Assembly (NCBI GenBank): GCA_019925105.1 | Contig: JAHGAU010000040.1 | Location: forward strand, 62,001-126,000 | Reading direction: 5' to 3' | From: Niebla homalea | Taxonomy: Eukaryota; Ascomycota; Lecanoromycetes; Lecanorales; Ramalinaceae | DNA: 64,000 nucleotides | Shown: one piece after another, positions 9,536 to 51,946 of the stretch | How the letters are laid out: the number at the start of each line of letters is the position of its first letter | Position numbering within the stretch: position 1 is the first letter of the stretch | The notes under the pieces: model-generated | Database searches by the model: none | Seen by the model: the letters and a program-made list of their open reading frames with translations, nothing else | What the model was told of the DNA's origin: nothing | Translations under genes and position numbers: made by a program

Positions 9536-10149
9536 AAAGAGTTTATTAAGGACTCTCCTTAACCTTCTTTATTAGTATTATTTTCTTTATTCACTCGGAA
9601 TAAATTTATAAGCTTTAAACTTTTTTTTTATTCAAGTATTTTTCCTTTTCTTTAATGACTACCCCATGAATAATAGCTTTAATAATTATAACGTTTTTGA
9701 CTTAACGTTTCAGAAGGGTGTTTTATTTCTTATAGGCCTTAATATTAATGATATAATATTTAATAGTAATAAAACCTTATCGGGTATATACCGATTTTAA
9801 CTTATTTAATAAGCCCTTTTTAATAGCCTTCTTTTTTATTTTCCTTTAATTCTATTTTTTAAGAAACTCCGGATCTTTATTAAGGATCTTTAAGAATTAA
9901 ATATATTTATTTAATATATAAAAACGGTTATTATAACGGTTAAATAAAGGAAAGGGAAAGGAAGGTCCTTAATTATCTTTAAAAAAGCGGTGAAAAAGGT
10001 TAATAAAGTAAGAGTTTAATTAATTACGTAATACTATAATAAATATATAAATTATACTTTAATTATTAATTATAGGCTATATAATAACTTTAATATTAAA
10101 AAGTCTACAAAATAGGTTTAAAAATATTAATAATTCAAAAATCTATATA

Positions 10150-25868: not shown

Positions 25869-26345
25869 CGTCAATAAGGTGGCCAGTCTCCTTGCAGATG
25901 GGGCACTTGCGGTTGGTACACAGCGATTTTGGATGGCCCATTTGACCGCAACCGAAGCACTTTCCGATAAAGGCCCTTGGCTCTGGACAAGCTGAGGCAA
26001 GGTGCCCGATCGCATGCCAGTTGCGGCACTCCTTGTCCTTCACCTTTCGAGGGCACGTGCAGTCTTTGGCTTTGTGGCCTGGTCTGTCACTGTTCGAGCA
26101 GATCAACGTATATTTGGTCCTCGGCACTCGTCAACAAGGTGGCCAGTCTCCTTGCAGATGGGGCACTCGCGGTTGGTACACAGCGCTCTTGGATGGCCCA
26201 TCTGACCGCAACCGAAGCATTTTCCGGTGAAGGCCCTTGGCTCCAGACAAGCTGAGGCAGGGTCGCCGATCTCGTGGCAGTTACGGCACTCCTTGGCCGT
26301 CACCTTTCGCGGGCGCTTGCAGTCTTTGGCTTTGTGCCCTGGCCT
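25869..26345 (-). repeat. Tandem duplication of a CCHC zinc-knuckle block (258-bp period)
   Basis: The plus-strand sequence starting at 25869 (GTCAATAAGGTGGCCAGTCT) recurs at 26127 with few changes, and the similarity continues for about 220 bp. Each unit encodes about four knuckles in the order CxxCxxxGHxxxxC, CRNxHxIGxxASAC, CFGCGQMGHPxxLC, CPICKETGHLxDxC. The left unit has a damaged knuckle (W for C in CRNWH; NS for a Cys in CSNSDRPGH). The two units are in different reading frames, so the duplication itself, or a later indel, broke the coding frame. Confidence 0.75.
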
Positions 26346-26873
26346 CTCACAGTTCTTGCAGAGACGCGAGTTGATCTGTTTCCGGAATGCTTCGGCGCTT
26401 GCGAGACTGACGTATCCTGCTTGTGGCAGCGTCGATTCAACGTGGGCAGTGACAACGATCCTATTGACCATATTCCAGGTGAAGAATTTTTTGAGATTGG
26501 TCGCCCAAGATCGGCTGCTGGCGATGATCTCACCCTCGTCATTGTACTGGTCGTTGCCGCCAGCAAGCTCTTCCCTGTCCTCATCATCATCGAAGTTGCA
26601 GTTCTTGTCTCCGACGACGACGAGCATGTCTTCAGGTCTCGTAAGCGCCACGTTGAGACGCTTCGTGTCAGTCACGAACCCCAAGCCTCCAATGCGGCTT
26701 CGGCTGACGACCATATCAAATATGACACATTTGTTTTGCGATCCCTGCAAGGAATCGATTGTGTTGACTTTTATGTCATAAATATTGCGTCTCTGCCAGA
26801 ATGCCGCCTTGCTTGCGGAATCGAAGGCTTGCCGGTATGCTCTGACCTGAGCGACGTAGGGTGTGGCAACGGA

Positions 26874-27017
26874 GATATCTCTTGCGCGGAATGCCGTTGA
26901 CGCGCATGCTGATCTCATAATTGAGATTATATATTTACCAATTTGTATATTCGTAGGGTATCTGTTGGGATAAAGATATATCTTGCACGGAATGGTGTGG
27001 ATGCGAGCAGGTGCTCG
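26874..27017 (-). repeat. Short direct duplication at the helicase break
   Basis: About 43 bp beginning AGATATCTCTTGCGCGGAAT at 26874 recur at 26974 as AGATATATCTTGCACGGAAT, 100 bp apart, followed by similar GATGCG/GACGCG sequence. On the minus strand both read as a segment like STxFRAR, part of the helicase linker before the C-terminal motifs. The duplication lies at the inner edge of the non-homologous segment (26930-27360). Confidence 0.55.
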
Positions 27018-30000
27018 ACGAAATGCAAAGACTGAATAATTTTGTGGAGATTCGGCCTAGGATGGGACGAGTTGGACAGAGTCACACCGTTGCTCACGCA
27101 TCATGATGAATATAACACCACATTCACGGTTTATGTACGAGTGACGGAAAAGAGATGTTGTGAACATCCAGGTGTCAAGTACACAATATTCAGCAAATAT
27201 GAAGTATTAGTCAAAGCTAACAAGCATATGTTCCTTGATTGTAGGACTGATATGACCAATAGTCTAACAATATCTGGCAGGAATCGTTTCCTTCGGTCTC
27301 AGACTTGCTGCCAATGTTTAAGCGGTCATATCAAAAGAACATGATCGGAGCGTCTTTCTGATTATTCTGCTAGGCGTTGCCGAGGAAGTTGATGGCCTCA
27401 ATGGCGAGCAGGCGACGGGTCAAGGCTGTTTCTGGGCCGTCTCGCAATATGCATCCGTAACAAGCATCCTTGGGGTAATCATTCAATTTGCGACGGTCCG
27501 ATGCTGTTCATCCAGTTGGAAGATGGGGTAATTACAGTCATACATGCGCTTAAAGACAGACTTTGCCATGGCATTCGCGAAGATGTTGATAGGCTTGCGA
27601 GTAGATGCGTTCTTCTTGAATCTGGTTTTGACTATGGGGCCGAGCTGTTCCAGATCCCCAACCAAGATGACCGACTTGATGCTATTGACATTGTGCATCA
27701 CAGGTAGCAATGTGGCCAGTTCTTTGTCCTGTAGGTCTTCATCAATAGCAACTATTCTTGCTGCAATAGTCTGTCTCAGAAGAGGTGCAGCAGCGTTCGA
27801 AGTTGTGGAGAGCACGAATGGGTGGTCCAAGAGTGTTCTGACCATCAGCTGGCGGGAGACACTTCTGAGACTTGGTTGTTCCGGCTCTGGCTCTTCATCC
27901 TCCGCGTACGGATGGTCACTGGCCTTCTTCTTGAATTTGCTCTCAATCGTGGCGTGAGGATCTAAGAAGATATCAAGAAAGGCCTGATCTCTGGAGTCAT
28001 CGCATTGGCCGCGGGTCATGCCTTTGGCGAAGTGACGTACAAAGTCGGTGTTAAGGTCGCCGTTCTGGTCGACTATCCCAACGTGCTGGAGGGCGTGTCT
28101 CCAGAGACCGCCTGCCTTCAGCCGGGTGTGCCCCAGTGCGGGGGATGCCTCGCCGGACACTGACTTGAACGGTTGCGTGCCATGAAGATATTTCCGCCAC
28201 TCGCGTCGCCCTTCGGTCAATTCGTCTGAGTCCGTTGTAGCGCCGGGAGATTTAGATGTGGTGGCGGGACATTTGTATGTGGCGAGTTTTCGAGAGCTGC
28301 GTACAGAGCTGGGTACGAGCTTTGTAGGTGTCTTTGAGGAGCCAGCAAGCTTTTTCGAGATTGGCAATGGCGTTGCAGCAACCGCGGCGTGAAACCGCTG
28401 GTGCATCCAGATGATCATATCGCTCTCTAAACCTTGGTTATGGTAGCGAATGACATCGATCTTCTTGGCAGGATCTTCCTGTGCACTGTCCCAGAATCTC
28501 ATACGTTCCACTAACTCGTCGACAGCTGCATTAGAGGGCGCACAGAACAACGCAGGGTAGTTAAAGGCCTTGCAGACACCCATGAGAGCTGCGAGGAAAG
28601 TACTTTTGCCTGCCTCTGCCGATCCCTCGAGCAACTTGAACAGGTGTGGGCTATGCGTAATGTATTTCAACGCCTCACGCTGGGTCCAATTGAGCGAGTT
28701 GAGCAGTTTGACAACTCGTGGTATCTCGGACGCTGGCAGGGTGTCTGGCTGGAACAGCATGTCGCTGACGAATTCAGGTGAGTGGTCGGTAGCTAAAAGA
28801 AACTTTCGGATAGTCTGCAATCTGTCAAGGTTAGTATCTCGGGACGGGTATAGAAGGCGGGCAGCACAGTCGACTAAGCGCTTCGGTGCCGTATCATTCA
28901 CATCCGGACAGAGGAAAAGCCTCGTGGTTGACTGTTCTAACATGTCTGGTTCGGGGCTGTCGATTGTCAAGGGATCGTACGTGACACCGGGGGCGCGTCG
29001 AACAAGCAATGTGAGATCGCCGAAATCCACCCGTTGCGAGCGAGTCGCAATGACAGTGTAGGGCCTGATGCACGTACCAAGTCAGCATTACTGTACAGTC
29101 TGGACGCTGTTGCGGGTGGATGGGCTGGTTTGGGGATCCACTTACCAACATTCCTTGGGCATCACGTTGGGATTTGGGCTTTCCTCGAAAGTGAGAACTC
29201 CTTTGCTACCCTCACGCAAAAGGTTTCTGATCATGGGGTTGTCAGGGCCATTGCCGTGGGCGGTGAACAGGTTGATCTTGTCTCCTGGCTTGCTGGCAGT
29301 AGCGGGCACGAAGCAAAGAAACAGAGGCGTCTGTAGCGAGTAGACAACGGCGTCAAACTCCACATCAGCTTCCCTCATCTCGCGATACCCAAACGTGAGT
29401 GCGTATTGAGCAATGTTCCTGTAGTACGTCTGGGGTAAGGGGGGCTCTCGATCAACCTCGGGGCCACAGGCAATTCCCCATTCAAGCCTGGGTTTTGTCA
29501 GTGTACGTTACTTTTACTTCAAATTTGAAAATAGTGCACTTGCATATATTTGTCCTGATATTCCGGATTTCTGCTCTTGTACTCGCTAAAGGGCTCATGC
29601 TTCCTGTCTTCCGCGAAGCGGTCCATCAACATGTCGAAATTTTTTGCAATTCTCTCGCCCGGTTTGTGGAAGTAAATACAGAGAGAACCGCTTGATGTCA
29701 AGCGCTCGAAGAAGTATGCTTGATTTTGACTCAGGGAATGCTTGAAGTTTGCTCGTTCATTGAGGTGACGGGTTTCGGTTTTTGAAGGATCGTAGTGAAG
29801 GTTCAGGCGCCAGAGTGAATTGTGTTGGATCATTGTATCAACTTTAGTGTCATCGTGCAGCTCGTCAGGCTTCTCGCTGACTCTTTCCAATGTATGTCGA
29901 TAGGTCGGAGACTCTGGATAAATGACAATCTGCTGGCGAAAGAAATGTTTGTCCTTGCGAAGAGGTTTTTCATGGATGGGGAATCGTGCGGTCACAGCAA

Positions 30001-31172: not shown

Positions 31173-32317
31173 AAACAAATTGAGGGGTTGGAAGGCGCTA
31201 GGATAGTCTGCTGCGGAAGATGAGCCTCGCTCAGAGAAAGCTGAAGATATCTAATGATGCCATGGTTGGCCATCTCGCCTTTAGTAGTGTTGCAAAGCGA
31301 GGGGATGTTGATTGAGGGTTCGAGTGAGGGGTTGGGAGGTTACCACCGGATTATTTTCAATAGCATTTGGTCGAAAGTGTTGAGTGAAGGTTGGAAAGAT
31401 CATCATAGCAAATTGAAACTCCGGATGCAGTATCAAGTCAGATGTGGCCCTCACTGCCACCCACGCCACGTTTGCCATTTGAGTTGACGCTGCAGGTCCA
31501 TTACCCCTAGCTAATCACCAATCAGATTGGCCCTAAAATAGACTGGAGACCCTGAGAAACGAGCAACGCTGCAATTGTCCTGCGTTCGCGGATAAGACAA
31601 CAGAAAAAGCTGCACCGCCTATACATCTTGCACACTTACACGTCTCACACGCCCTACATGACACGTACCTGAGAAGACACCTCACGACCAGTTGCCTCCA
31701 TCGCAACAAGCATAGAAACTCTATGATAGAGCTGAAGAAATTGAGATATGTGCAAGACTTCCCTGCACCTGACGTAACGCCTGGTCCCCACATGCTCCCA
31801 CAAGTCCAGGCCAAAAAGCTCGCATTTTTCTTGAAGAACCTGAGTACTCAGCAACGTCTTCGGAGCTGCAGAGGATTGCAGTGGTGTGCCGACCTTGTTT
31901 TGGCTACAATGAGGTGCCCGTAGAGCAATTGCGAGGGCAACCGTGAGAATGAACTCAAAAGGACGAAGTCAAGGATGACCGGACCAAAGGGTATGCGATG
32001 GCCAGGGGTCGTGGCGACGGTCTGTCAAACCCCAGGTCTGCCTAACGGGGTCATAATTAAAGACCCTCGACTAGCTAATGGTCACACGGTCAATGGAAGC
32101 GAAAGCTTTCTCATATCAGCAGCGCGTTCTTAATCACGACCCCGACCGAATCCAAAGGACAACACCAAAGGACTAAAAGCTCGCATTATCATGACATCTG
32201 CTCATAGATGCGTCCTCTTGAGATCGTTAGCATGGGACTTCTTGGGAAATTCTACGGATCAGTGATTGACACTTGTGAAGCCGGCTATGTCCACTTTGAA
32301 GCCAGCCACATCGACCG
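31173..32317. other. Intergenic, nothing recognised
   Basis: Short frames (65-93 codons) on both strands without domains. Composition is normal. It separates the tandem repeats from the plus-strand helicase fragment and may include decayed sequence of that paralogue. Confidence 0.45.
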
Positions 32318-32900
32318 ATGAAAGATTTCGGAGATGACCACCTACGTTCAATAGACCCAAATTGCGCTCTCACGCACATTGGCAAAAGCCCACACCTCTT
32401 CAAGATCCTGCAAGGTCCTGCCGGCACGGGTAAAAGCACCGTTCTCGCACCTTCCATGGGCATTTGTAAGGCATTCAATTGCTCGACGCTTTTCTGCGCG
32501 CCTTCCAACACAGCAGTAAAAAAGCTGGTTGACAAGATCCAAAAGTTGGATGGTAGGCTTAACGTCATTCGCTATCAAAACCAGCGACTGAGGGTGACAT
32601 GGTTGTCCATATGCATGCGAAGTTTCGCGGCAGACGACTTTGAACCCACCAACACCGCAGCAATCGTATTCAAGTTCAGCCTAGACTTGCTGAGGCCTTC
32701 GTCGCTTCTTCGCTTCTTCAGTTCCGCCCCGCTCCTCCCCTGAAGCCTCTCCCGCCTGCCACCGAGGCCTAGAGAGAATGGCTGCTGTGTGTGCAAGGCA
32801 CTACATCGTTCAAGAATCTGTCCAACGCCGCGTCCCCGTGCATCGGCAGCCGCCTTCTCAAATCCCTACAACGTCATATAGAAAATCGCGGTTATGGAGC
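32318..32900 (+). pseudogene. Fragment of a second UPF1-like helicase, inverted relative to the first
   Basis: A frame of 141 codons from 32318 includes SPHLFKILQGPAGTGKST, ICKAFNCSTLFCAPSNTAV and LDGRLNVIRYQNQ, which align with SPHLFKLLEGSAEAGKST, VCKAFNYPALFCAPSNAAV and VIRYHNQ of the minus-strand helicase. After a stop at about 32743 a second frame (from about 32770) continues the homology with REW...GTTSFKNLSNAASP against REW...GTQPFKSVSGEASP. Here Walker A is canonical (GPAGTGKST). Both ends are missing: there is no Q motif and no Walker B. It is a truncated, frameshifted paralogue on the opposite strand, 2-5 kb from the other. Confidence 0.8.
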
Positions 32901-33193: not shown

Positions 33194-34852
33194 CTAAGCC
33201 ATTTTTGCAAGCGCCTGGCGGTCCACGCCATTTGCATTCGTTGGGAACTTCTCCAAGATGATAATGTCCTGGGGTACCAAATGTGAAGGAAGTTGGGCCT
33301 GCAGTGTCTTGAAAATTTGCTGCTGGATCACTTGCCTAGCCTGCTGCTGAAGTGGCTGATTGCTGAACGTGTTTGGCGGCCGGCCCTGATGGTCGGTGGG
33401 GAATCGGAACATGACCCTGCCGCGCCCGCTTGACGGCTCAAGACGGTGAAAGATTGCGTCCAGACCACCACGTTGGGAGTGCTGCCTCGCCCAGCTGATT
33501 TCGACCTGATAGCCTGCTTGACTGGCGAGGTTGGTCAGGTCCACGGCCGAGAGCGAGGGGCATCTCTGGCTCTTTTGACGGACGGAAGAAAGCCAATCTG
33601 GCTCCTTATCTCCTACACCTTCCTTGAGCGCGTCAATTACATGCCTCTCGAAGATGGTTTTGCTGTAGGGAATGTTGCTCAAGGCGACTACGCCAGGATT
33701 AGAGACTTTTAGATGATGCATGAGGGCTTCATCATCCAGTTTGTGGTCCATGAAGTCGATCCACTCGTCATTGCTGACCTCATGTATCTTCTGTTGCGCT
33801 ACTCCTAGTTTTTGCTCCCGATCCTTAACATGGATGATGGCAGCATACCGATATGAGGCCAACTCATTGTTTGCTTTCATCTTCTTGGGGACAACCTGGA
33901 CATGCTCAATGAGATTGGGAAACTGGCTTGGCAGGCTGGTGAAAAAGGCCGGATCGACCAGCAACTCCAACTCTGCTTGTGCTATTTCCGTCATTGCTTC
34001 TCGAACCTCCGCCTGGCTCACCTCTTTCCCTTCCCCGTGGAGAGCTTTACTGACCAGGAAATCTTTCTGAAGAGCATAGGATCGTATATCGCCAACGAAT
34101 ATGGTTTGAACGCTGTCAAGTTGAAGGATGCCTTCTACCACCTCAGACAGGTAGTCGCGGCTGGGAAAATACTGCGCAACTGAGTTGATTATGACGACGT
34201 CAGGACGGCCTGATCCTAGTAGGTGAAGATCCGTTGCTGTGCCTTGGTACACGTGGACTTTGTCCGCCAAGCCGACCGATCTTGCCATCGCAGTAACAAA
34301 GTCAACTGCACTTTGGGAGATTTCAAGCCCGAGATAAGAACTCAACTTCTCGGAGATGCTGAAGAGGACCATTCCAGAGCCTGTTCCAAGCTCGAGGACG
34401 TTGAGCGGACGCCCGCTGGTGCAGGCAAGGATCGTTTCAATCGTGTCGTCCAGCCACTCGTTCATCCGCCCTTTATCTAGTGGCCTCCCGTCATATGCTG
34501 AAACCCAACCGGTAAAATCCCGTCCGACGGCTTCATGCTGCGTGCTGTTTTCCATGGCCGCGTACACATTCCCATCGAAAATAGTCTCCCATAGCTGTAC
34601 GTGCTGCGTTCCGTATTCATCACCGGACTGTCCTTGACCCTCCACCTCGCTCTCGATGGCACGCTTGTGTAGTGTGACAAACCCGACATTTTCGGCGTCT
34701 GGACCCTCTTGTAACACTACGGCAGCATCTTCGACAGACGCCTGGTCGCGTATGAGCTGCTCGACTTCTTCCAAGTCAAACTTTCCCCCTGGGGTATAGA
34801 AATGTTCGTCCATCTGGCCTCCGTCCTTCAGCGGACGTTCCCAGAAGGCCAT
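33194..34852 (-). CDS. NRPS-derived N-methyltransferase with adenylation-domain remnants
   Basis: One frame, open from 35161; the Met at 34850-34852 gives 552 residues and is the first after which similarity appears. The centre is the SAM-dependent N-methyltransferase domain that sits between the A8 and A9 motifs of fungal N-methylating NRPS modules (enniatin/cyclosporin synthetase type): GRDFTGWVSAYDG, then motif I VLELGTGSGMVLF, DVVIINSVAQYFPS and FVGDIRS. The N-terminus (FDLEEVEQLIRDQASVEDAAVV) resembles the stretch after A8, and the C-terminus (QAQLPSHLVPQDIIILEKFP) is the last part of an A domain. The A10 motif, normally NGKVDR with the catalytic Lys, reads NGVDR: one codon is missing. 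There is no A-domain core, carrier or C domain. It is either a degraded NRPS or a freestanding N-methyltransferase. The MT core looks intact. It is divergent from the PKS-NRPS across 2.3 kb. Confidence 0.75.
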   Translation of the reverse strand: MAFWERPLKDGGQMDEHFYTPGGKFDLEEVEQLIRDQASVEDAAVVLQEGPDAENVGFVTLHKRAIESEVEGQGQSGDEYGTQHVQLWETIFDGNVYAAMENSTQHEAVGRDFTGWVSAYDGRPLDKGRMNEWLDDTIETILACTSGRPLNVLELGTGSGMVLFSISEKLSSYLGLEISQSAVDFVTAMARSVGLADKVHVYQGTATDLHLLGSGRPDVVIINSVAQYFPSRDYLSEVVEGILQLDSVQTIFVGDIRSYALQKDFLVSKALHGEGKEVSQAEVREAMTEIAQAELELLVDPAFFTSLPSQFPNLIEHVQVVPKKMKANNELASYRYAAIIHVKDREQKLGVAQQKIHEVSNDEWIDFMDHKLDDEALMHHLKVSNPGVVALSNIPYSKTIFERHVIDALKEGVGDKEPDWLSSVRQKSQRCPSLSAVDLTNLASQAGYQVEISWARQHSQRGGLDAIFHRLEPSSGRGRVMFRFPTDHQGRPPNTFSNQPLQQQARQVIQQQIFKTLQAQLPSHLVPQDIIILEKFPTNANGVDRQALAKMA

Positions 34853-37115
34853 CGTCAGTGCCTTAGTCTGCCTCTGTGTCTGCTCGTTGATTGGGACATG
34901 CACCCTTAGGTCTACTGGCGTAGGAGAGTTCCTGTGGTGAGTACGTATGTCTGCGATCTTAAAGCCATCCCCAGTGATAGGCAAGCAATATTGTGCGCAA
35001 GAACATGGGGCTTGGGGGGGGGGATAGGTGACCGCGATTCGTTTCCCGCAAGAGCGATGCGGACACGCTTCTCGAACCTCTCGGATGCCGGCTATCACGC
35101 AGTGCAGCTTCTCGTTGAGATCATGTGCAGAAAGCCCCCATTCAGGAATTGTAACCTGCATGTCACGGCATTGCGTGATAGGACTTCCTCGGTCCTCTTT
35201 TGACTTCTCCGGGTTCTATTACCGTCCACACAGCAGCTACCAGCGATGGATTTTTTGGAGTACGGTAGTGTGGACCCACTACCCGAGTGGGGTAGCGCGC
35301 CGATTAGTGGACTTCTTAGGTTTCTCCCGTCCCCTTACAAACTCGGGATATATGCTGGATTGCCGCCATGTGCTAAAAGCAGAAAGAGAACCTCGATCTG
35401 CTATTGATAGTGTTGAGATCGCGCGCATTAGGTTTTCACAGCATATTATAGCTCTCAAAATGGGCAATCTGGCTGGAAGGCCCCCCCAATGTTTCCAATG
35501 CTCCCAGATGCACCAAATTCAGAGCAGTTCTAGGCCCCGGAGATATCCCCACTCTAAAAACATACGTTGCGCATGACATCGTTCACCTCCATTGTCGGTG
35601 CGTCACCCCACTCGAACATGAGGTGGTTTCCAAACTCTAATGGCTGATACATTATTCCCTTAAGGTAGGCGGAAGGAAAGGACCGCGTCCCCCACCGTGA
35701 ACCCTAAATCTAATTTGCTCGATCCCTACGTGTTTGTAGTGTTTTCTATTGGCCTGTCTCAGGACCTGAGCTACAGGGACCTCGCCATCGAGGCACCCCC
35801 GCCGTGGCCCGGCCACGGGGTGAAGCCAGGGCTGAGAACCTCCCCGCAAGAGCTGGGAACCTGGGGCTATCTATATAGAGCTATGTACACAAAAGGATTG
35901 GGCGGGTGGGCAATTTTGATAAGAGCCGTTGTCCAAGGAGGTCCTCAATGATGAGATGAAGAACTCAGGTATTTAGGTGAGCTGGCTCACACAAATCTCT
36001 GAGTTCCCCCGCGCGGCCCCTGAAGAGCCGCTTAGCCGACAGGTGGCCACTCCGCATATCCGGCAAACTACACCCTTCACAATTCCGCCTGGGCCGGAGA
36101 TTTGCATAGTAGTCTGTCAATTGTCGTTGTATACTCTAAGTCTTACAACAGCAGTCACGAGTCAGGCGTAAGTCAACCGGGGGGTTGTACCCTCCCACAA
36201 ACGGCAGAGCACGCTCATTGGTCTTACCTTGCATCAACTGGACAGGTCTTCTTCTCTCCTGCTCAATATGATCATGCATTTGCCTGAAGCAGTATAGAGA
36301 ATTTGCTTGTATGATTACGTAAATGATTCTTCCATCTGAGAACGACGCAACACTCCACCTTTCAGCTTACTTATACGGGTGACTTTATAGTTACAAGTCC
36401 CCTTTCTGTCAGACAGGATGTATTTTCTCAGCACATCACACCTCCACGGATTTCCAGGGACCAGTCGATGTATCCTCGTAATGCTCTTTAGGCTGCTATG
36501 CACCACCTGTGGAGACGTATTCTTTGCCAAATATTCGCACACGTTGCGATCCTCGTCATCTCTCTTGACGTGTGTGATACATATCGCCACTCATGAAGCG
36601 TGTTCTATTCACAATAGGTCTGTGATTCATGAAGGATCCACGAATGACGGAACCTGGCTCGCGATCTACAAAGTGGATCTTTACTACCGTGCATGACACC
36701 AATCTCGCCAGTCAGGGAACCTGCAACCTGATCCAGGCCTTCTCATGTGTGAGAGGCTATTCATGCAAGAGACCGCAAATCAAGAGGGAGATCTGCGAAG
36801 TGCATTTCGGGTGTCCTCGCAGTTTGTGTTCGCCGTATGTTGGTCTCATCAAGGGACCATTGCGGTTAAACATGGCTTTCCAATGGGATGACGCGATTTC
36901 TTATTGGCTAGGGTATGCAGCTTATCTCATGGAGGTGTCTCTGCCTGACATCACGACTCGCGATAGGTTGTCCAGGTTTATTATGTCTTCAGTGAAAGAA
37001 GGACACAACCCTCCGACAGTACCATTGCCATTTGACTGAGTGACCCGCTGTAGAAGAGCTCCAATCGTTCCAAACAGATCTTCCGTTATTCATTGTCCAT
37101 CCTGCCAAACCTGCC
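34853..37115. promoter_or_regulatory. Divergent intergenic region between N-methyltransferase and PKS-NRPS
   Basis: About 2.3 kb between the two start codons. It should hold the promoters of both genes. The minus-strand frame of the methyltransferase stays open to 35161, but that extension has no recognised similarity. Short frames (up to 182 codons at 35028-35576 and 136 codons at 36629-37039, both plus strand) have no domain I recognise. I found no binding site that I could assign to a specific regulator. Confidence 0.4.
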
Positions 37116-40100
37116 ATGTCAGAGCGACCCCCTCTGGCTGTCGTTGGCTATGCTTACAGAGCACCTGGTGTCGGTAGAAAGGGTCTTTGGGAGTTCCTAG
37201 AAGAGGGAAAATCTGCGTGGTCGCCTATTCCACCTGACCGTTTCAATCAGGATGCATATCATCACTCAGACCCAGAAAAACCTGGTTTCATCTCGTCCAA
37301 AGGGGCTCACTTCCTGCCGGACGACATATACGCTTTCGATCCATCTTTCTTCAAGATCAGCGCCGAGGAAGCCCGCGCTATGGACCCGCAGCATCGACTT
37401 CTGCTCGAATGTGCTTTTGAGGCTACAGAGGACGCTGGCCTCACAATCCCCGATCTCCTCGACTCTGACGCGGGCGTATTTGCAGCCGGCGTCGACTCGG
37501 AATATAACGTTGCCATGGCGGATGATATGCCAACTTCGTCAAAGTACATGGCGCTTGGCGTTGCGCCAACTATGTTCGCCAATCGTTTATCTTATTTCTT
37601 CGGTCTTACCGGGCCGAGTATCACCGTGGACGCTGCCTGCGCTTCCAGCTCCTATGCACTCCACCTCGCATGTCAGAACATTCTAGCCGGGGAATGCTCC
37701 ACAGCCTTTGTTGGAGGCACGAAGCTTCTCAACGGCCCGACTCAATGGAGTGGGCTGGATACGATGGGGTGCGTGAGCTATACCCAAAACCCAATTATTG
37801 GCAGAGGACCGTTATCATAGGCTGACCTGACACCTAGGACACTGTCATCAGAGGGCAAGTGCTTTTCGTACGACACCAGGGCGTCAGGTTTTGGAAAGGG
37901 CGAAGGGGCTGCCTGTATAATTATCAAGCGATTTTCAGACGCACTCGCTTGCGGTGACCCGGTCCGAGCCATAATCCGCAATACGGCCTGTAATCATTCA
38001 GGACGCACACAAGGAATCTCGATGCCATCCCGCGCTGGTCAGGAGGAGCTTCTATTTAGATTGCACCGCGATATTGGTGTCCAACCCAGCGAAACTACGT
38101 TTGTGGAGGTAAGGCATTGCGCATGTGTTTCTAGAATTATACGAAGACTTATTGCGGAAGGCTGTAAAATGCACGTGCAGCAAGCTAAATTTGGGTATAG
38201 GGCCATGGAACTGGAACACCAATTGGGTAAGCGTTCATTCATATGGGCTTTCACGTCCCACTCAGTCCTTCCTGCTAATAGACCAGAGATCCAATCGATG
38301 CTAGCGCCATCTCGTCGGTGATTGGAAGTAGCAGATCTCCTTCTGATCCAGTACATATTGGGTCAGTGAAATCAAATCTGGGGTCAGTTTTCTCCTGCTC
38401 TCTACTTCAGGGAGACTCTGACGCTGAGAGTATGCCTGTAGTCATCTCGAAGGTGCTAGTGGTCTGATCTCAATCATCAAATGCATCATGATGCTGGAGC
38501 GCGGAGTCATGCTGCCCAATGCCAATTTCACAGAGCTGAACCCGAAGATTGAGCATCGCGAGCGTTTGAAGGTAAGTTTGTGAAGCTGCTAGAGCCCAAT
38601 CTATGTGAGGATGATGAATAGATGGAGCAGGTACTGGCCAAGTCGGCACCATGGCCGTCTGGTGCGTTGAAAAGAGCCTGCGTGAGCAATTTTGGTTTGT
38701 CCACTCCTACCAGGAAATAAATCCTGAAGCAAATTCCATGCTTTCCGCTCACACAAGGAAGGTTTTGGTGGCAGTAATGCGGCAATACTACTCGAAGAGG
38801 CGCCAAAGACCCCTTCCCAGGAGAAACGCGACGCGCCCAGTGGTAAAGTAATTCACCACAATATCGACAGCGTTCGATCCGAAGAAAGAACTGATCATGA
38901 CGGATCTGTAATCACAATTACAGGTAGAGAGAAGACGGTCTTGCCAGATCCCCGCGCAACCGATGGCATTTTTGACCATCTATTTCTCTTCTCCGCACAG
39001 TCTATGAACAGTCTTGAAGCCTATGTGTCTTCTTTCGAGAAACGTTTGGAAGAGGCGCCAAAGTCTTTAGAGTCAGTCAAAGACCTTGCCTTCACACTTG
39101 GGCAGCGAAGAACACATTTTGCTCATCGGCTCGCTGTGGCGGCAAACTCCACAACGTCCTTGAAGGATCAACTGAGATCAATACCGAAGGTTACAAAGTC
39201 CGGGAAGACAAAGAACCCTATCGTCGCATTCGTTTTCACCGGACAAGGCTCGCAGTACTTTCAGATGTCTGCCGGTCTTCGACAATACAGCGAATTCGGG
39301 GAAACCATCCTCGCCGCTGAGCAACAACTCCTGAAACTTGGGGCCGCATGGTCTTTGACAGAGGAGCTTGATAAGGATGAGCACATGTCTCGGATTAATG
39401 ATGCTGAGATCAGTCAGCCCGCGTGTACCGCCATCCAGCTCGGCCTTGTTGTTCTGCTTCAATCATGGGGTGTCTTGCCAGTAGCGGTACTCGGCCATTC
39501 CAGCGGGGAGATAGCCGCTGCATTCGCGGCAGGCCTTGTCTCTTTCAAGGCTGCGATCGCGATTGCCTATTTCAGAGGCATCGCTGCCTGCAAAGTCCTC
39601 AAGGATACCAGAGTCCAAGGAGCAATGTTGGCAATCGCGACTGATGCTGAGGAGGCACAAAAATTCTTCGACTTTGCGATTGGCTATGCAGTCGTTGCGG
39701 CATTCAATAGTCCGAAGAGTGTGACCATCTCCGGTGACGTAGCTGCCATCCAGCATATTCAAGAGCTGGCGAAGAAGCAGGGTCTCTTCGTTCGAAGACT
39801 GAGAGTGGGGGTGGCCTATCACTCCCGCCATATGGAACGAGTTGAAGACTCATATCTAGCCTCCATCCAACCAATTTGCTCTTCTGACCAGCCATCACTG
39901 GGTGAAGCATCAACGAAACCATGGTTCATATCTTCGGTCACTTGCCAGAGAGAGTCTGCAGCTGTCGCCCAAGCATCATATTGGGTCAGAAATCTACTTC
40001 AACCAGTTCAATATCTGAACGCAGTGGAAGCCTTGTTCTCGGAAAGTGATAACAGTAATGGCAAAGTCAGAGTACCAGACGCCATTGTCGAGATCGGCCC

Positions 40101-43100
40101 ACACTCAGCGCTACAAAGTCCTACGAAGCAGATACTAGAACGGATCACATCAAAGAATGGCCAGAACCCTCAAATGCACGTGACATATTTTCCCTCGCTT
40201 GTACGCGGCAAGGGGGCGACTACGACTCTGCTAAATCTCGCTGGAAACTTGTTCACAATAGGATCAGAGCTTGATCTTACTGCAATCAACCAGACCAACT
40301 ACTCTCGGGTCCAGGTTATCAAGAATCTCCCATCGTATGCATGGAACAAGACCGCCAGATACATACATCAATCCCGAGTTGCAACAAACAGGCTTCACAA
40401 TGGAACACCTTATAACCGGCTTCTCGGCTGGAAGAGCCCCTATAGCGAAGGGCACGAACAAGCATTCAGGAATGTTTTCACTCTCGAAGACATGCCCTGG
40501 ATTCGGGATCATGTCGTCGCTGGGGACATCCTTTTCCCTTTCACTGGTTTCGTATCCCTTGCCGTCGAGGGTTTCAGATCGCTCAATTCCACCTTGTCGC
40601 AGGGTGTGGTTATACAAGAGCTCCATGTCACCACAAGTCTGAAAATCGAAGAGGACCAGCGCATTGACATTACCACCAAATTCCGACCGGCAGTAACTGG
40701 TACAGAGACGGTTTCGTCGAGCACCTGGGCTTTTGAGATTTTGACTTGGTCAGACTCTTACGGCTGGACAAGACATTCCTACGGCCTCGTTGAGGCGGAC
40801 CATAGTCCCGAGTCTCTCTCGAGAAGCCCAAATGTTCGATCTGCCTTAAGGACACTGGATGACAAAAAACTGCAACACGGGGATGCACAAGACGAGTACG
40901 CTCTTCTACAAAAAAACAGTGATCTTACTTACGGTCCGACTTTTCGTAATATGGTCCACCTTTGGCGCGCACCGGGAGTCACCGTTCAGACAATGGTTTT
41001 GCGCCATTTGGAACCTGACGCCCATGCGGTCCCTGAAGCATCTCCAGTCACCGTTGACCCTCCTACCTTAGACACCGTATTTCACTCGCTCGGTGCCATG
41101 CGAGGGGGAAATGGCGACATGTCATCTATTGTACCTTCATATTGCCTTCGATGGCGAATTTCCAATTTCATTTGTGCGGACGCTGGGCGAGAATTCTCCA
41201 TTGTTGGCAGACTTTTGGGTCGTGATGAGAGGTCGGGTACTATGCACGTGCAATTCGTCATATTCGATGTATCATCAACTTCGCCACCGAAGCCTGTCGC
41301 AGAGATCGGCCCCGTCAAGCTACAATGCATCGCCAGACCGGATGCACAGGATCTGCGCTTCCCAGATAGCTATGCGATCAGGCACGTGCCGTACGTGCAT
41401 CTCCTAGACACACAAGTCCTTTCCGAGATGGTTCAGGGGGCCCCGGCGGAAGTAGATGAACTACGGCGACGGCGTGATCTGGACAATGCTGCGATCTATT
41501 TTCTATCGCGTATGCTCGAGGAGTGTGCAGACGACGACCCGTCGGGCTTACCTTCTCACCGCGCTAAGTTCATCGGCTGGGCCAAACGTACTGTCATGGC
41601 ACAGCAACCTGCTATTCCTGATTCAGTGACCCTGATCGATAAGGTCTCATCCTCTAATGATGCAGGAAAAATGCTGTGTGCAGTTGGTGCACAACTGCCC
41701 CAAATACTACGCGGGGAACAGCAGCCACTGAATATTATGCTTGAGGATGGCCTACTCCAGCGTAATTATGAGCAGTATGACGGATGTAATCGCGTGAACC
41801 AAGCAGCAGGAAGATACATTGCACGTTTAGCAGAATGTGACCCTGAACTCAACATACTGGAGATTGGCGGGGGTACTGCAAGCGCTACGCTGCCTATTCT
41901 CGAAGCCATCCAGAGCGCAACAGTAGGAATGGTGTCATCCTTTCATTATACTTTTACCGACATCAGCGCGGGCTTCTTCGACAATGCCCGCATGAAATTA
42001 TCACAATGGACGGAGCGGATGACCTACAGTAAATTGGACATTTCCCAGGACCCCCTCGCACAAGGATACAATGCTGAGTCTTACGATGTCGTTCTCGCCA
42101 GCAATGTCCTCCATGCCACGCCGGACATTGTTGCAACCTTGAAACACGCCAAGGCCGTACTCAAACCCAATGGGAAGCTCGTTCTTATGGAAGCTGTGCA
42201 AGACGCTGCACCCCATTTCTTGCCATTTGTCTTATTGGATGGATGGTGGCTGTCGAAGGATTCTTACCGCTCACCAATCGATGGACCTCTGTTAACTAAA
42301 GTATTGTGGAGCGATGTGCTCGAAGCAAACGGCTTCTCTGGTGTCGAAGGTCATGTGGATGATTACCCAGGCCAGCCAGAGCATCTTTTTTCTACAATGT
42401 GGTCGACAAAATACGGCGTCATATCGGCTCCAGGCAAGGAAGAAGTCGATCTATCAATCACGGTCTATCATTCTTTCCCCGTGGAAGGAAATATTGAATT
42501 TTTCAAGGCTGTCTCTGATAATCTTACTCATGAGCTAGGCAGTACATCAAGGATGAGGCACCTTCTACAACATGAAAACGACGAGAAGAACCCTCTCTGC
42601 GTCATTCTGGACAGCCAGCAACATAGCGTGTTGAGTGATCTGTCAACGGAGATGTTTAGGAGACTGAAAGGCCTCCTCATGCAGGCATCCAGCTTGCTTT
42701 GGGTTTTGCCGGAGAAATCCCATCCAGACGCCTCAATCATTACAGGGGTGTTGCGCTCTCTGCGCCTTGAAGCAAGCTCGAGCAAGTTACTCCTACTCCA
42801 AGCTCCTTTCAATGCACATGGTGCTAGAGCGATTGCGCGGGTCGTACAGCATATGACCTGGGATCCAAGATCGAAAATCGGTAATGAACAAGAATATTCT
42901 CTGATCGACAACAAGATACATGTCCCGCGACTTCAACTCAACGAAGCTCCAAGGAAGACATTTATCGAAGAGGCGGGAGGATCGACGAAAAAGGAGGAGA
43001 ATATCTGGGATGCGGACGGCGCAATCGAGATGACAGTGGATGTCGTTGGCAGTCCTGACCCTGTATTCTTCCGGCACAGCGACATCCTGAATACAGAACT

Positions 43101-46100
43101 GGGCGATAACGAGATTGTCGTGCGCGTTGGGGCGGTTGGCATGAACTTCCGGGACCTGCTCCTGGTCCTTGGGACTCTATCATGGCATGCCCCTGGCCTT
43201 GAGGGGGCTGGCGTTATTGTTGATGTTGGGTCCCGAGTAAGCGACTTGCAGATTGGCGACCGTGTCTTCTATGTTGTCCACGAAGCTGGTATGGCAAACT
43301 TCGTGCGGATGCCGAGCTTGCGCGCCCACAGACTTCCAGTCGGTATAGACATGGTTGATGCAGCATCCATGCCAGTTGCGTACGGTACGGCGATCACGAG
43401 TATCATCGACGCTGGTCGCTTGCAGAGAGGAGAAACCGTCCTCATTCATAGTGCATCAGGAGCAGTCGGACAGGCCTGCATCATGATTGCTCAGCAAGTA
43501 GGCGCTCGCATATTTGCTACAGCAGGCTCAGTGAGTAAGCGAGAATTCGTTGCACAAACCTTTGGCATTCCGACAACTCAGATCTTTTCGAGTCGAACCT
43601 CTGAGTTCAAGGATGAGATATTACAGGCGACGGATGACCGAGGGGTTGATGTGGTTGTCAATTCACTTAGCGGCCACCTACTTCAACAGACCTGGGAGTT
43701 GATCGCAGAGAATGGTAGGTTCATCGAGATTGGAAAGAAAGATCTCCTCGAGAACAGCTATCTCCCAATGAGACACTTCGACAAGAATGTGACCTTCAGC
43801 GCTGTTGATCTACGGAAAGTCGCTACCGCGAGACCCCAAGCAGTTAACGAATGGCTGTCGAGCATCGCTCGCATGGTCGAAGGTCAGGAAGTCATGCCTA
43901 TTCGCCCAGTGACCGGCATCCCCATTTCTCAAATCAAGACAGGCCTGCGGAAGCTACAGTCCGGTCAGAACATTGGCAAGATTGTTGTTACCTTGGGACC
44001 CAATGAGACTGTGATGGTAGAGCGCCCCTCGCTATTGAGCGCACGGTCGGGGAGTCTGTTGGACAAAGATGCCACATACTTAATTTCAGGTGGGACTGGA
44101 GGGCTCGGTCGCGCTTTAGCACCTTGGATGATCGAGAAGGGTGCTCGAAATTTAGTCCTCTTGGGGCGCAGTAGCACTCCCAGCGCAAAGGTGGTTGAAT
44201 TACTCAAACGATATGAAGGCACCGACGTCTGCGTCAGGGCTCTTTCCTGTGATGTTGGCTCGCGCACTGACGTGATCCGCACTACCGAGGCTTTGAGGGA
44301 CCTTCCTCGAGTGCGCGGTATAATCCATGGGGCTCTTTACTTGCGAGTAAGTGGACATGACGTCGAGCATTGCTTCAACACTGACTGTGCTTGAGGATGC
44401 AATATTCGTTGATGCTACATCTGAAGACTGGCAGCAAGTAATGGGACCTAAGGTCAAAGGAGCGTGGCACCTACATGAGCTCTTCCCGAACCTCGATTTC
44501 TTCGTATCCTTGTCCTCTATGACCGGCCTGGTTGGCAGGATTGGAACCTCGTTGTATGCTGGTACTTCGGTACGTTCTAAATTCCGATCGTATAGTGGGC
44601 TCGTCGCTAACAGAAGGTCGAGACATTCCTCGACGCATTCTCAGAATATCGATTCAAGCTAGGATTACCCGCTGTTGCTCTTGATTTGCCCATCGTCGAA
44701 GACGTTGGCCTTGCAGTCGAGCGTGGCACGATTGAGCAGGTCAAAGCTCACCTAGGCGTCACCATAAGTGAAGACCAATTCTACACACTGATCGAAGGAG
44801 CCATCGTTGGGCCATCATCTGGACTCAACGCGGATGGAAGAAGTCTATCGTGGAAATTAGCTTCAAAATCGGAAATTGATTTCCTGGCTTGGGAGCATTT
44901 CAACCCACTGTCCGTAATGCGGCGTCAGCGAACAGATTCCAGTGGCGTGAAAGCTAGTTCCGATAAAAACAATAAGCTTCAGGACCTTGTCAGAGACGGG
45001 TCTCCCAAGCTCCTTATGGATGCGTTGAGCGACAAAGTATCGTCCATTACGATGATCGATAGAGATGACATTACACCCGATAGGAGCTTGAATGACTACG
45101 GCCTCGACAGCTTGTTCTCCTTGGAGCTTCGTAACTGGATTCGGCGAAGTTTGGATGTTGACGTGGCGCTCAAGGACATCACTACCGCAAGAGACTTAAA
45201 GGCTCTTGTGGACCAGATTCTCCTCCTTAGGAACAGTACGGGATCCGCATCGACGCTCCCACAAAGCAAAAACCTTCCGAATGCCCTTGATGAAGATGAG
45301 CTGATATCCGACAAGCCCTTGAATGAGATGCATCTGCTTGGTGTAAGAGACGAAGAGCGAGAAGACATTCAGAAGTACCTCCAGTCAATTGGCATTGACG
45401 TCTTTAACATAGAATCGGTATTGAGCTGTGCACCAGTACAAGAAGGAATCCTGTTCGCCCAGTTGAAGAGTCAGGGGCGTCAATACTGGGAGTGCTTGAC
45501 GCTGAAACTAACACCAGAAGGTGCCAACGGATGCGTCGATATTGACAAGGTCGCAGCCGCCTGGAAAGCCCTCTGCGTGGCGCAACCCATGCTCAGGACC
45601 GTCTTTACGAGCTCTCCATCGAGCATAGGCGCGTTCCAGCAAATCATCTTAAAGAAGACGGACCCTTCCATTTCTCGTGCGACCGTTGACTTGCAGGCAG
45701 GGCTCAAATCGATCCTAGAGACCATGAAAGAGCCCCATTTTGCAACGGCACAACCACCACACCATTTACATCTCACCCAGGCTTCTGACTCTGTCGTTTA
45801 CGCGTCCTTTTACATGAACCACGCTCTCTTCGATGATAGATCGTTCCGACTCATTGGTCAGCAGCTCCGTCAGGCGTACGTAGATCTGGCCAGTGTGACC
45901 AAAGGTCTCGATATTAGCAGGTACATTAGGTGGGTCCGGGATCATCCACAGCCCGCGAAAGACTACTGGACAGCCCACCTGACTGGCACTGGACCGTGCC
46001 TCATCTCAATTCTGACATCTTCCGAGACAAGCCTGTTGGATAACAACTCTCCACCTTACATTGATGTATCAATCAACCAACTACGCATGCTCCATCCATT

Positions 46101-49100
46101 CTGTCGCCAACACGGTGTAACTGTGGCTAATGTAGTGCAAGTTGCATGGGCTGTCGTCCTACGTCAGTTCAACGAATCGCAGTCAGCGGTTTTCGGCTGT
46201 GGCCAGTCCCAAGTAGGGGCAGTTGAAGGTGATGAAACTACTTTGGGGCCGCTCCTTGCGAACATGATCTGCAGGATTGATGTGGGTGAAGGAATGACAC
46301 CTCTGGAATTGTTGAAGAAGGCAAGAGAGGACTCAATATGTGCCCTGGACCTCCCTAGCTATTCAATGGGGGAACTTCATGAGGCCATTGGGCTTGGGAG
46401 TTTATCACTTTTTGACACGGCAATGACAATCGTTCGTTATCCTCCTGAAAAGCCTACGACTGCGGATGGAATTCGGGCAGAATGTTTACTGCCAGAGGAA
46501 AACCCCACTGAGGTAGGTACTTCGGCCCATCTAGAATACTCCTGTATCGCGCTGACGTCACATACTTACTCTCCAGTATGCCGTGCTGGTGGGTGTAGGC
46601 TATGACAACGACAGCATCGAAGCAAGGTTGTGGTATGATGCTACCAGGGTCTCTCGGTCTTTAGCAGCACAACTCGGACCGTTATTTACGGCGGTGGCAA
46701 TGAAGATTGTCGATGACCCAGAACAGTCGATTGAAGCTCTCGAGTCGTCAATCAGTAAACCTTCAGCGGCCTTTTCAGCTCAAGATATTGCAAGAACCAT
46801 ATATCGTGAAGCGGCTTCTCAGTGCGAAATCGCGGCCAGCTCACTCGAGGACATCTATCCCTGCAGTCCTTCACAGCAGCAGCAGATCCAGGCATCTGTC
46901 CAACAAAAGCATGGGGGCTGTTTGGACCAGTACGTCTTCAGAGTGCCGAAACATTCATCACGGACCCGACTACATAACGCGTGGGATGCGGTGGCAGCAG
47001 TCAGCCCTACACTACGTACACGTATCGTATCCCTAAAGCAGGGTGGTATCTATCAAGTCACTGTGAGAGCCACGCCGGGCTGGAATGGAGAGGTGTCCCT
47101 CTCTGATTATATCCAATGGGACAGGGACTTTCGGATCCGCTATGGCGGGCCCCTATGCCGATTCGGCGAGGTGGATCAGCCAGACGGCGAGACATACTTC
47201 ATTCTCTCACTGCACCCTGCAATCCACGATCCATGGACACTCCGACTTATCGTGAATGCCGTAAGGACGGCATATAATAATCATGGCGAGCCACCACCAC
47301 CTTTCCCGTCTTTCAGCACCTATATGCGCCACTTATCAGGTCGCAAAAATCAGCAAAAGGCACAAGTTTTTGGGAGAGCTTGGCCTGCGTGGTCCGACGA
47401 AGCCTCAATGCAGTTCCCACATATGCCTCACGGTGCACCTGAGCCAGATCTCTCCGGTTCGAGCTCGTTGGACATCCCAATGCCCAGTACTGGTTCAAGT
47501 AACGGAGGTGTGCCGAGGGCACTTGCTGTGCTCCATGCTGCCTGGGCATTGTGTCTCTCAAGGCTGAGTGGAGACAGTAAAGCCTGTTTCGGTGTTCATG
47601 TGGACGGCCGTAATATACCAGTTGACGGCATTGCTCGCATGAACGGGCCACTTGCAGCCGTTGTTCCTTGTACCATAGACCTGGCCACGTTAGCAACCGG
47701 CGAGTCGCTTCTTGGAGCTGTCCGTGAACACGTAGACTCCGTGACGCCATTCCTTCGCATATCAAGCTCAACCGAAACATCTACGGACCACGACATGGAA
47801 TCGGTGTCACAATCATTCCGGAATATTCTCATTGTTCAGAGCGATCCTGCATCACTTGGGCAAACCGGGTCGCTAGAGCTTCTTGAACTCATACAGACAA
47901 GATCATCAGAAAGCTCGCTCAATGGAGCCAGGCTAGTAACACGCTGCAGTATCTTAGCCGAAGAGACTCTACGCATCGAGATACAATACGACAAGCAGGT
48001 CATCTCTCCAGAAGACATTGATATCCTGTTGGTGCAATACAAGCATGCCATAATGCAGCTCCTCTTGAAGGCCACGGCCCCATTGGTAGATCTGGAGCCT
48101 GTGAGTGATCACGAGAAGTCAATACTCCTCGATTGGAACACAAACAGCCCCAGCCGCGTGGATGCATGCATCCAAGATCAGATAAGCGATGTAGCTAAAC
48201 GACAACCTTCTGCCCCTGCCGTTTGCTCTTGGGATTACGACCTCGACCACGGACATCTGGATGATCTCTCGGATCGAATGGCTGTTCTGCTACAAGAAAA
48301 GGGCGTCAAAGCTGGGACGATGATGCCATTCTTCTGCGAAAAGTCTGCCGTAGCTGCCATCATCATGGTTGGAATCTTGAAAGCTGGAGGAACTCTCGTC
48401 GCCATGGACTTGGACCATCCCGCCCAAAGGTTGGCCACTATCCTGAAGGACGTTGGTGCGTCTATAATCATCACCTCGTCTGCGTTGTGCGAGAGGGTCA
48501 AGGAAAAGGTGGAGGCTAAGATTACTGTTGTTGTCGATATGGAGAGCGTCCAAAGTCTACCCACCGGCAGTCATCGAATTGTCATCCAACCTTCGAACAC
48601 ATGCTACGTCGTCTACACTTCAGGGAGCACAGGCAAACCCAAAGGGATTGTAATCTCACACTCCAACTTTGCCACGAGCGTGCATCATAATCGCGGCCTC
48701 TTTGGCATGACAGCAGCAACCAGGACTCTGCAATTCTCCAACTTCATTTTCGATGCGGTCATGTACGAAGTCTTCATGACCTTGGTATCAGGAGGCTGCG
48801 TCTGCTTCGCTCAGGAATCAGAGAGACTCAATGATATCCCGGGTGCCATCCAGCGCATGCGTGTCAATTATGCAATATTGACACCGTCTACAGTCACGGT
48901 TTTCAGGCCTTCCGATGTGCCAACTTTGCGCACGTTGTTACTTTGTGGGGAGACCTTCTCAAAGGACATGGTAGAGCGATGGAAACATGTCCGGCTTATC
49001 AATGGTTACGGGCCTGGTGAAACGACCGTCTCATCGTCACAATGTGTGTTGTCACCTACTTCTGGCATACACCATCTAAATATTGGACGACCTGTTGCTT

Positions 49101-51946: not shown

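What the first reader, a model, noticed from the sequence alone, without database searches (positions are those of the whole stretch)
37116..51946. PKS-NRPS hybrid with a complete reducing PKS and three C domains, lacking TE and reductase
Seen: KS, AT, DH, cMT, ER, KR and ACP motifs with their catalytic residues, then two C domains back to back, one A-T, a third C and a serine-less carrier-like end. Known: fungal PKS-NRPSs of the fusarin, tenellin and cytochalasin type end KR-ACP-C-A-T-R and use a trans ER. Here the ER looks intact in cis, there is an extra C domain before A, and the end is C rather than R. Inference: product release and chemistry differ from tetramic acid pathways. This is the best candidate in the window for an undescribed system.
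Basis: partly seen in the sequence, partly recalled or inferred. Interest (0 to 1): 0.88.

Follow-up and report, generated by a model that had tools for sequence, protein, structure and literature searches.

The report
Fungal polyketide-peptide synthase with silent domains
A giant fungal enzyme that probably joins a polyketide chain to one amino acid and closes the product into a ring keeps two parts that have lost their catalytic residue, and it sits next to a separate methylating enzyme that looks cut out of another peptide synthetase.

Summary
Window 37116-51946 (+) is one intact ten-exon gene, 4,755 aa, ordered KS-AT-DH-cMT-psiKR-ER-KR-ACP-C1-C2-A-T-C3-T*. (1) C2 is catalytically silent: 27 of 28 domains of its clade lack the second His of HHxxxDG, against 0 of 125 other C domains, yet C2 stays conserved. 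(2) C3 is terminal-type: it clusters with 20 of 22 terminal C domains; best solved relative TqaA CT. The serine-less end is a conserved carrier-like fold, without Ser in 27 of 27 family members that reach it, window included. (3) A divergent gene, 33194-34852 (-), is a stand-alone NRPS-type N-methyltransferase, and 7 of 8 long named synthase relatives share a contig with such a gene. Best reading: reduced, C-methylated polyketide plus one N-methyl, perhaps aromatic, amino acid, closed by C3 as a macrolactone of the thermolide or PF1163 kind; not a tetramic-acid hybrid. Relatives at 61-78% identity exist, none seen to be characterised, so it is a new variant, not a singleton. The product is unproven.

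The parts
37116..51946 (+). PKS-NRPS gene, ten exons: 37116-37768, 37838-38108, 38201-38226, 38287-38382, 38442-38571, 38622-38694, 38762-44346, 44396-44569, 44623-46512, 46577-51946; 4,755 aa
   Evidence: splice model without stops; long relatives
37131..38784 (+). KS domain (spliced over exons 1-7), Cys in DAACASSS, HGTGT
   Evidence: PF00109, motifs
39214..40197 (+). AT domain, GHSSGE
   Evidence: PF00698 6e-45
40411..41292 (+). DH domain, HVVAGDILFP
   Evidence: PF21089 and PF14765, motif
41458..42399 (+). C-methyltransferase domain
   Evidence: PF08242 6.8e-18
43024..43977 (+). cis ER domain, SASGAVGQA
   Evidence: PF13602, PF00107 and PF08240; matches solved ERs over its length
44062..44868 (+). 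KR domain; Ser/Tyr present, Asn of YxxxN replaced by Ser
   Evidence: PF08659
44974..45195 (+). ACP, DSL serine present
   Evidence: PF00550
45409..46723 (+). C1, condensation domain with NHALFDD motif; lies in a clade rich in C domains that follow an E-sized gap
   Evidence: PF00668; tree; gap count
46844..48097 (+). C2, condensation domain without catalytic second His (LHPAIHDP)
48098..49711 (+). A domain, code DAYLLCGVS plus K in PLTNSGKIDR
   Evidence: PF00501 1.2e-62
49832..50011 (+). T domain, LGGNSIR
   Evidence: PF00550
50177..51448 (+). C3, terminal (CT-type) condensation domain, RHALYDV
   Evidence: tree; TqaA CT best in PDB
51587..51796 (+). T*, carrier-like stretch without phosphopantetheine Ser (CGGDLV)
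51807..51930 (+). in-frame 18/36-bp tandem repeat coding the E/K-MNG tail
33194..34852 (-). stand-alone NRPS-type N-methyltransferase (A8/A9 stub, nMT, A10 stub), 552 aa if it starts at ATG 34852; frame open to 35215
   Evidence: one match in the genome
34853..37115 (.). 2.26-kb region between the divergent N-MT and PKS-NRPS starts, possible shared promoter
   Evidence: positions only; inference

Best explanation
The gene encodes a single-chain iterative PKS-NRPS that makes a polyketide-amino acid macrocycle. The PKS half builds a C-methylated, reduced chain on the ACP using its own ER. The A domain loads one amino acid, perhaps Phe/Tyr-like, on the T. The divergent stand-alone N-methyltransferase, an A-domain C-terminal part carrying an nMT, methylates that amino acid in trans. 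C1 forms the amide; C2 no longer catalyses and serves as a structural platform next to A. C3, a CT-type domain, releases the chain, most likely by attack of a polyketide hydroxyl on the aminoacyl thioester to give a macrolactone. The pseudo-carrier T* occupies or gates the face of C3 where an acceptor carrier would dock. Shown: domain order, missing residues, CT clade, N-MT kinship and linkage. Inferred: chemistry, substrate, trans methylation, ring closure and the roles of C2 and T*.
For: Intact frame and domain set. C3 groups with 20 of 22 terminal C domains, SH-aLRT 98, with no internal one in that set of 45 rows (quick tree, no bootstrap); best PDB match TqaA CT at 2.5e-27, next family 1e-11; predicted fold closest to TqaA T3CT/CT. 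The 28-row C2 clade lacks His in 27, the other 125 C rows in none; C2 identity to eight relatives is 55-69%, like C3 (51-72%), so it is not visibly decaying. T* lacks Ser in 27 of 27 members that reach it (window included), of 29 printed, and models as a carrier-like helix set, block pLDDT 69-94. N-MT: best PDB match by sequence and fold is the interrupted A-M-A domain 5wmm (8e-42; 4.4e-32, TMq 0.63), SAM motif kept. Linkage: 7 of 8 long named synthase relatives share a contig, by equal contig length, with an N-MT relative, six of them within two locus-tag numbers. A code shares D, A, Y, G, K with PscyB Phe DAYAVGGICK and Tyr/Phe DAYTSGGICK (PMC5941284 Table 1, passage seen). Product-class precedent: macrolactones with an ester between polyketide and amino acid (PMC9961484, passages); 13-membered melearoride/PF1163 macrolides with an N-demethyl congener (PMC8305465 and PMC7763435, passages).
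Against: No product, RNA or enzyme data. CT domains can also release by hydrolysis, oligomerisation or an external nucleophile (recalled). The A code of the window matches the aromatic codes at only 5 of 10 positions and varies among relatives. KR lacks the usual Asn, so its activity is uncertain. Linkage was seen for 12 of 33 synthase entries; of the 21 without, nine are on contigs over 25 kb. The N-MT search admits only proteins of 0.55-1.75 times the query's length, so it favours stand-alone relatives by design. Thermolide synthase and PF1163 genes were not available for comparison. Trans action of the N-MT rests on linkage and homology alone.
Confidence: 0.6

Rival explanations
1. Same assembly line, but C3 releases by joining the chain to a separate nucleophile (amine, alcohol or second acyl chain), or dimerises it, giving a linear ester/amide or a diolide rather than a one-unit macrolactone.
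For: C3 is CT-type, and C domains at chain ends are known (recalled: cyclo-oligomer synthetases, wortmannamide and FUM14-type release) to do intermolecular chemistry; the conserved T* could be a relic of an acceptor carrier.
Against: T* lacks Ser in 27 of 27 members that reach it, so it cannot be loaded; no second synthase or acyltransferase family was listed for the 30 flanking ORFs scanned.
Confidence: 0.25
2. The NRPS half is decaying: E-like domain lost, C2 dead, T* dead; the enzyme now releases a polyketide or simple amide and the rest is relic.
For: Three of 11 proteins with a readable ACP-to-C1 stretch keep an extra E-like domain that the window lacks; C2 and T* lack catalytic residues.
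Against: C1, A, T and C3 keep their motifs; C2 and T* are about as conserved as C3 and the losses are shared by nearly the whole family, which recent drift would not give; no stops or frameshifts.
Confidence: 0.08
3. A conventional PKS-NRPS with a mis-called end, making a tetramic acid or pyrrolinone after release by R/DKC.
For: Overall HR-PKS fused to C-A-T layout is shared with those hybrids (PMC7421883 passages).
Against: No R or DKC family listed in the frame; stop at 51944; the printed relatives that reach the end finish the same way; cis ER present.
Confidence: 0.02

Closest known systems
Uncharacterised PKS-NRPS relatives in Cladobotryum mycophilum (P0003), Teloschistaceae lichens (P0006, P0010, P0014, P0021, P0048, P0059, P0091) and Aspergillus terreus (P0216)
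   Same: C1-C2-A-T-C3 order and silent C2 in these nine; T* in eight of nine (P0003's model skips it); PKS domains where the model covers them; linked N-MT in eight of nine
   Different: P0003 and P0010 (and P0002) carry an extra E-like domain between ACP and C1. Models of P0048, P0059 and P0091 lack most of the KS, and P0216 begins late in the PKS. P0003 bears the source name 'valA' and its N-MT 'dtxS1'; I could not trace or test these names.
Fungal PKS-NRPS of tetramic acid/pyrrolinone type (tenellin, fusarin, cytochalasin)
   Same: iterative HR-PKS fused to C-A-T (PMC7421883 passages)
PKS-NRPS macrolactones: thermolides, metacridamides, versicolide, georatusin; PF1163/melearorides
   Same: polyketide joined to an amino acid by an ester (PMC9961484 passages); PF1163/melearorides are 13-membered macrolides, with an N-demethyl congener (PMC8305465 and PMC7763435 passages)
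   Different: their synthases were not at hand; similarity is by predicted product only. That PF1163 holds N-methyl-Tyr and torrubiellutins N-methyl-Phe is recalled.
TqaA terminal C domain (PDB 5dij, 5dlk, 5ejd)
   Same: best match of C3 by sequence and fold
   Different: about 24% identity; TqaA ends at CT without T* (recalled)
TioS interrupted A-M-A domain (PDB 5wmm)
   Same: A8/A9-MT-A10 order matches the N-MT gene in sequence and fold
   Different: here the A-domain core is absent and the unit is a free protein; the name TioS for 5wmm is recalled
Trans N-methyltransferases PscyA (cycloaspeptide) and DtpB (ditryptophenaline)
   Same: separate N-MT gene serving an NRPS (PMC5941284, passages)
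   Different: homology of PscyA/DtpB to this protein was not tested; in the cycloaspeptide case modules accept N-methyl amino acids fed to the culture

Membership tests
Fungal tetramic-acid-type PKS-NRPS | HR-PKS fused to C-A-T | tested here: met
Fungal tetramic-acid-type PKS-NRPS | terminal R or DKC domain | tested here: not met
   none listed by Pfam; end is C3-T*
Fungal tetramic-acid-type PKS-NRPS | inactive cis ER with trans ER partner | tested here: inconclusive
   cis ER matches solved ERs over its length; no ADH-type family among the 30 flanking ORFs scanned; activity not testable
Fungal terminal C (CT) domains | groups with terminal C domains | tested here: met
   set of 25 C3 and 20 of 22 terminal rows, SH-aLRT 98; TqaA best
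Fungal terminal C (CT) domains | catalytic His in xHxxxD | tested here: met
   RHALYDV; family C3 25 of 25 keep H
Fungal terminal C (CT) domains | macrocyclising activity | not testable with these tools
   needs enzyme or product
PKS-NRPS macrolactone synthases (thermolide type) | ester between polyketide OH and amino acid carboxyl in the product | not testable with these tools
   no product known
PKS-NRPS macrolactone synthases (thermolide type) | sequence kinship to the thermolide synthase | not tested
   sequence not at hand; the JACS 2020 paper seen only as a reference entry
NRPS N-methyltransferase (A-M-A) | nMT fold with SAM motif between A8 and A9-A10 | tested here: met
NRPS N-methyltransferase (A-M-A) | embedded in an adenylating A domain | tested here: not met
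   no AMP-binding core listed in the ORF, only a sub-cut-off AMP-binding_C end; first 40 of 84 hits are 467-592 aa (length-limited search)
Trans N-MT of PscyA/DtpB kind | homology to PscyA/DtpB | not tested
   sequences not at hand
Catalytic NRPS C domain (for C2) | second His of HHxxxDG | tested here: not met
   window and 26 of 27 other clade members lack it

The most novel reading that the evidence does not exclude
Fungal megasynthases keep catalytically silent domains as working parts: C2 as a fixed platform between C1 and A, and a serine-less pseudo-carrier after the terminal C domain that gates ring closure by sitting where an acceptor carrier would dock. The pseudo-carrier would then be a general part of fungal CT release, since it recurs in many fungal NRPSs outside this family, and the partner N-MT would be a methylating module evolved by excising the C-terminal part of an A domain.
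Probability: 0.35. Interest if true: 0.78.

Novelty: new variant of a known kind. Interest (0 to 1): 0.6.

Why it matters
It marks a conserved PKS-NRPS lineage, uncharacterised as far as the searches here show, shared by lichen fungi, Cladobotryum (Hypocreales) and Aspergillus, with a simple two-gene unit and a testable product class. It also offers a handle on two points of fungal NRPS logic: why silent C and carrier domains are retained, and how terminal C domains choose ring closure over other release. If the PF1163/melearoride class belongs to this lineage, it gives a genome handle on those antifungal macrolides.

Tried and rejected
Valactamide/valA: P0003 is named valA by its source. Of six papers listed for 'valactamide' I opened four at the matching passages and found no gene data there; two were not opened, and the key synthesis paper is not held. 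Left open. Cladobotryum genome paper PMC10989895: a term search found neither valA nor PKS-NRPS. Torrubiellutin: two papers listed, passages of one, no gene link; Conoideocrella luteorostrata does hold an N-MT relative, P0154. PF1163: passages, no gene cluster seen. ERG3-like neighbour (52759-53868) as a self-resistance gene: the genome has a 48% match over 119 residues on contig C3, and two ERG3 copies are common (recalled), so not claimed. C1 as plain LCL-type: non-family rows of its clade follow an E-sized gap in 10 of 16 cases against 1 of 46 other internal rows, so an E-associated origin is preferred; against this, the four rows nearest to C1 (P0221, P0229, P0230, P0235) follow their T directly. 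The organism could not be named; many PKS fragments and lichen relatives suggest, only weakly, a lichen fungus. Paper searches: 10 of 10 used; none was made for serine-less carriers or tandem C domains, so no claim is made that these are absent from print.

Limits of counts: searches list the best 120 of 1146 and of 2792 hits. The C2 clade is the 28-row starred set; one HH row (P0041) joins it at support 88 and is counted outside. The other 54 N-MT lengths, compared by eye, add none. Of the 21 without a match, 12 are on contigs under 25 kb and nine are not. The scan is a loose regular expression: of 153 proteins that end in C, 86 gave no carrier-like match, 2 had Ser and 65 did not; about eight of the 65 matched at a wrong place. 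The T* rows were chosen by a pattern that excludes Ser, so they show alignment, not frequency. Column 10 of the A code was mis-extracted; the Lys is read. The tree used 49 of 179 proteins. 'E-like' rests on recalled motifs, not on a family model.

Full report
Observation. The stretch 37116-51946 (+) holds one gene. Nine GT..AG introns of 44-92 nt, placed by hand on conserved motifs, join ten exons into a frame without stops; moving the acceptor of intron 8 to 44622, as most relatives suggest, gives 4,755 aa. Pfam places KS, AT, DH, MT, ER, KR and PP-binding, then Condensation, Condensation, AMP-binding, PP-binding and Condensation.

C2. In the HHxxxDG motif C1 reads NHALFDD and C3 RHALYDV, but C2 reads LHPAIHDP. 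Among 155 C-like rows from 49 proteins, 28 form the C2 clade and 27 of them lack the second His (20 Pro, 5 Arg, 2 Tyr), while the 125 C rows outside it keep it; two E-like rows are set aside. C2 is 55-69% identical to eight relatives, C3 51-72% and C1 61-77%, so C2 is kept at a similar level without its catalytic residue.

C3 and the tail. In a quick tree C3 lies with 20 of 22 terminal C domains and no internal one (SH-aLRT 98); the two left out, from P0005 and P0024, are long branches. By sequence its nearest solved domain is TqaA CT (2.5e-27, next family 1e-11), and the model of T-C3-T* (mean pLDDT 79, pTM 0.82) is nearest to TqaA T3CT/CT. After C3 follows T*, with helices like the true T in the model (block pLDDT 69-94) and GGDLV where T has GGNSI. 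Of 29 family tails printed, window included, 27 reach this point and none has Ser: 26 Leu, 1 Val. In a loose pattern scan of 153 proteins that end in C, 27 large NRPSs outside the family show GGD followed by Leu or Ile after the terminal C domain, 2 proteins show GGDSI, and 86 give no carrier-like match. So the serine-less end is conserved in the family and recurs outside it.

C1 and the E-like domain. Non-family rows in C1's clade follow a gap of about 580-600 aa, room for T plus E, in 10 of 16 cases, against 1 of 46 other internal rows; the four rows closest to C1, however, follow T directly. P0002, P0003 and P0010 carry about 424 aa between ACP and C1 that read like an E domain (recalled motifs) without its second His; of 11 proteins with a readable stretch 3 have it and 8, the window included, do not. 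In the window this is certain at the DNA level, since ACP to C1 is one open exon; in relatives it depends on gene models. A Zymoseptoria brevis NRPS without PKS (P0235) has C1-like and C2-like domains in tandem. I infer that the NRPS half came from such an NRPS fused to a reducing PKS.

The partner gene. The frame 33194-35215 (-), divergent from the synthase, is a methyltransferase with weak A-domain ends. From ATG 34852, a start chosen from the length of relatives, it codes 552 aa. It matches the interrupted A-M-A domain 5wmm by sequence (8e-42) and by fold (4.4e-32, next 1.5e-7; mean pLDDT 80), keeps GTGSG, lacks the adenylating core, and gave one match in the genome. The first 40 of 84 hits are proteins of 467-592 aa, in a search that bars proteins over 1.75 times the query. 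A. terreus (tags 0010000300 and 0010000600), the more distant Truncatella and three unnamed entries also pair: 12 of 33 entries in all. Wetmoreana P0006 has no partner listed; its contig is 20 kb. Nine unpaired entries are on contigs over 25 kb.

Mechanism. Shown are the parts. Inferred: chain building with C-methylation and cis reduction, one amino acid loaded by A (code DAYLLCGVSK, sharing D, A, Y, G, K with the Phe and Tyr/Phe codes of PscyB), N-methylation in trans, amide formation by C1, ring closure by C3. This would give a polyketide-amino acid macrolactone like thermolides or versicolide (PMC9961484, passages) or the 13-membered PF1163/melearorides, of which an N-demethyl congener is known (PMC8305465 and PMC7763435, passages). 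The link to any of these is a prediction.

Against. There are no expression or product data. The KR has Ser where Asn is usual. The aromatic prediction is weak. CT domains have other release modes. The source name valA on P0003 could not be traced, so a characterised relative outside the held library is not excluded.

Comparison and novelty. Tetramic-acid-type membership fails on the terminal domain. Membership in the CT class is met by clade and motif, not by activity. Relatives at 61-78% identity over their aligned stretches make it a family, not a singleton; none was seen to be characterised in the capped listings or in the papers listed by ten searches, of which I opened only some. I file it as a new variant of a known kind, with the conserved silent domains as the most interesting part.

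Noticed in passing
Proteins outside the family, e.g. P0013, P0015, P0049, P0062: A carrier-like stretch with Leu/Ile in place of Ser (GGD[LI][VILM]) follows the terminal C domain in 27 large NRPSs outside this family; I have not searched print for it.
   Followed up: partly
52759-53868 (-): FA_hydroxylase (PF04116) gene, ERG3-like by recall, convergent to the synthase; a 48% match over 119 residues sits on contig C3. Could be a plain second copy or a resistance copy.
   Followed up: partly
51807-51930: In-frame 18/36-bp tandem repeat coding a K/E-MNG tail at the end of the synthase.
   Followed up: no
1-10000: Very AT-rich block (17-28% GC) with a sharp change to about 47-50% GC from 10 kb on, as in RIP-affected isochores.
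   Followed up: no
26103-29081 (-) and 32300-32743 (+): AAA_12 (with a zinc knuckle) and AAA_11 ORFs, and a separate AAA_11 fragment on the other strand near the N-MT.
   Followed up: no
57587-58432 (-): Questin oxidase-like (PF14027) ORF downstream, near PSMD12/CSN4-like and HECT_2 ORFs.
   Followed up: no
P0235, Zymoseptoria brevis NRPS: C1-like and C2-like domains in tandem inside a PKS-free NRPS, suggesting that the C-C pair predates the PKS fusion.
   Followed up: partly
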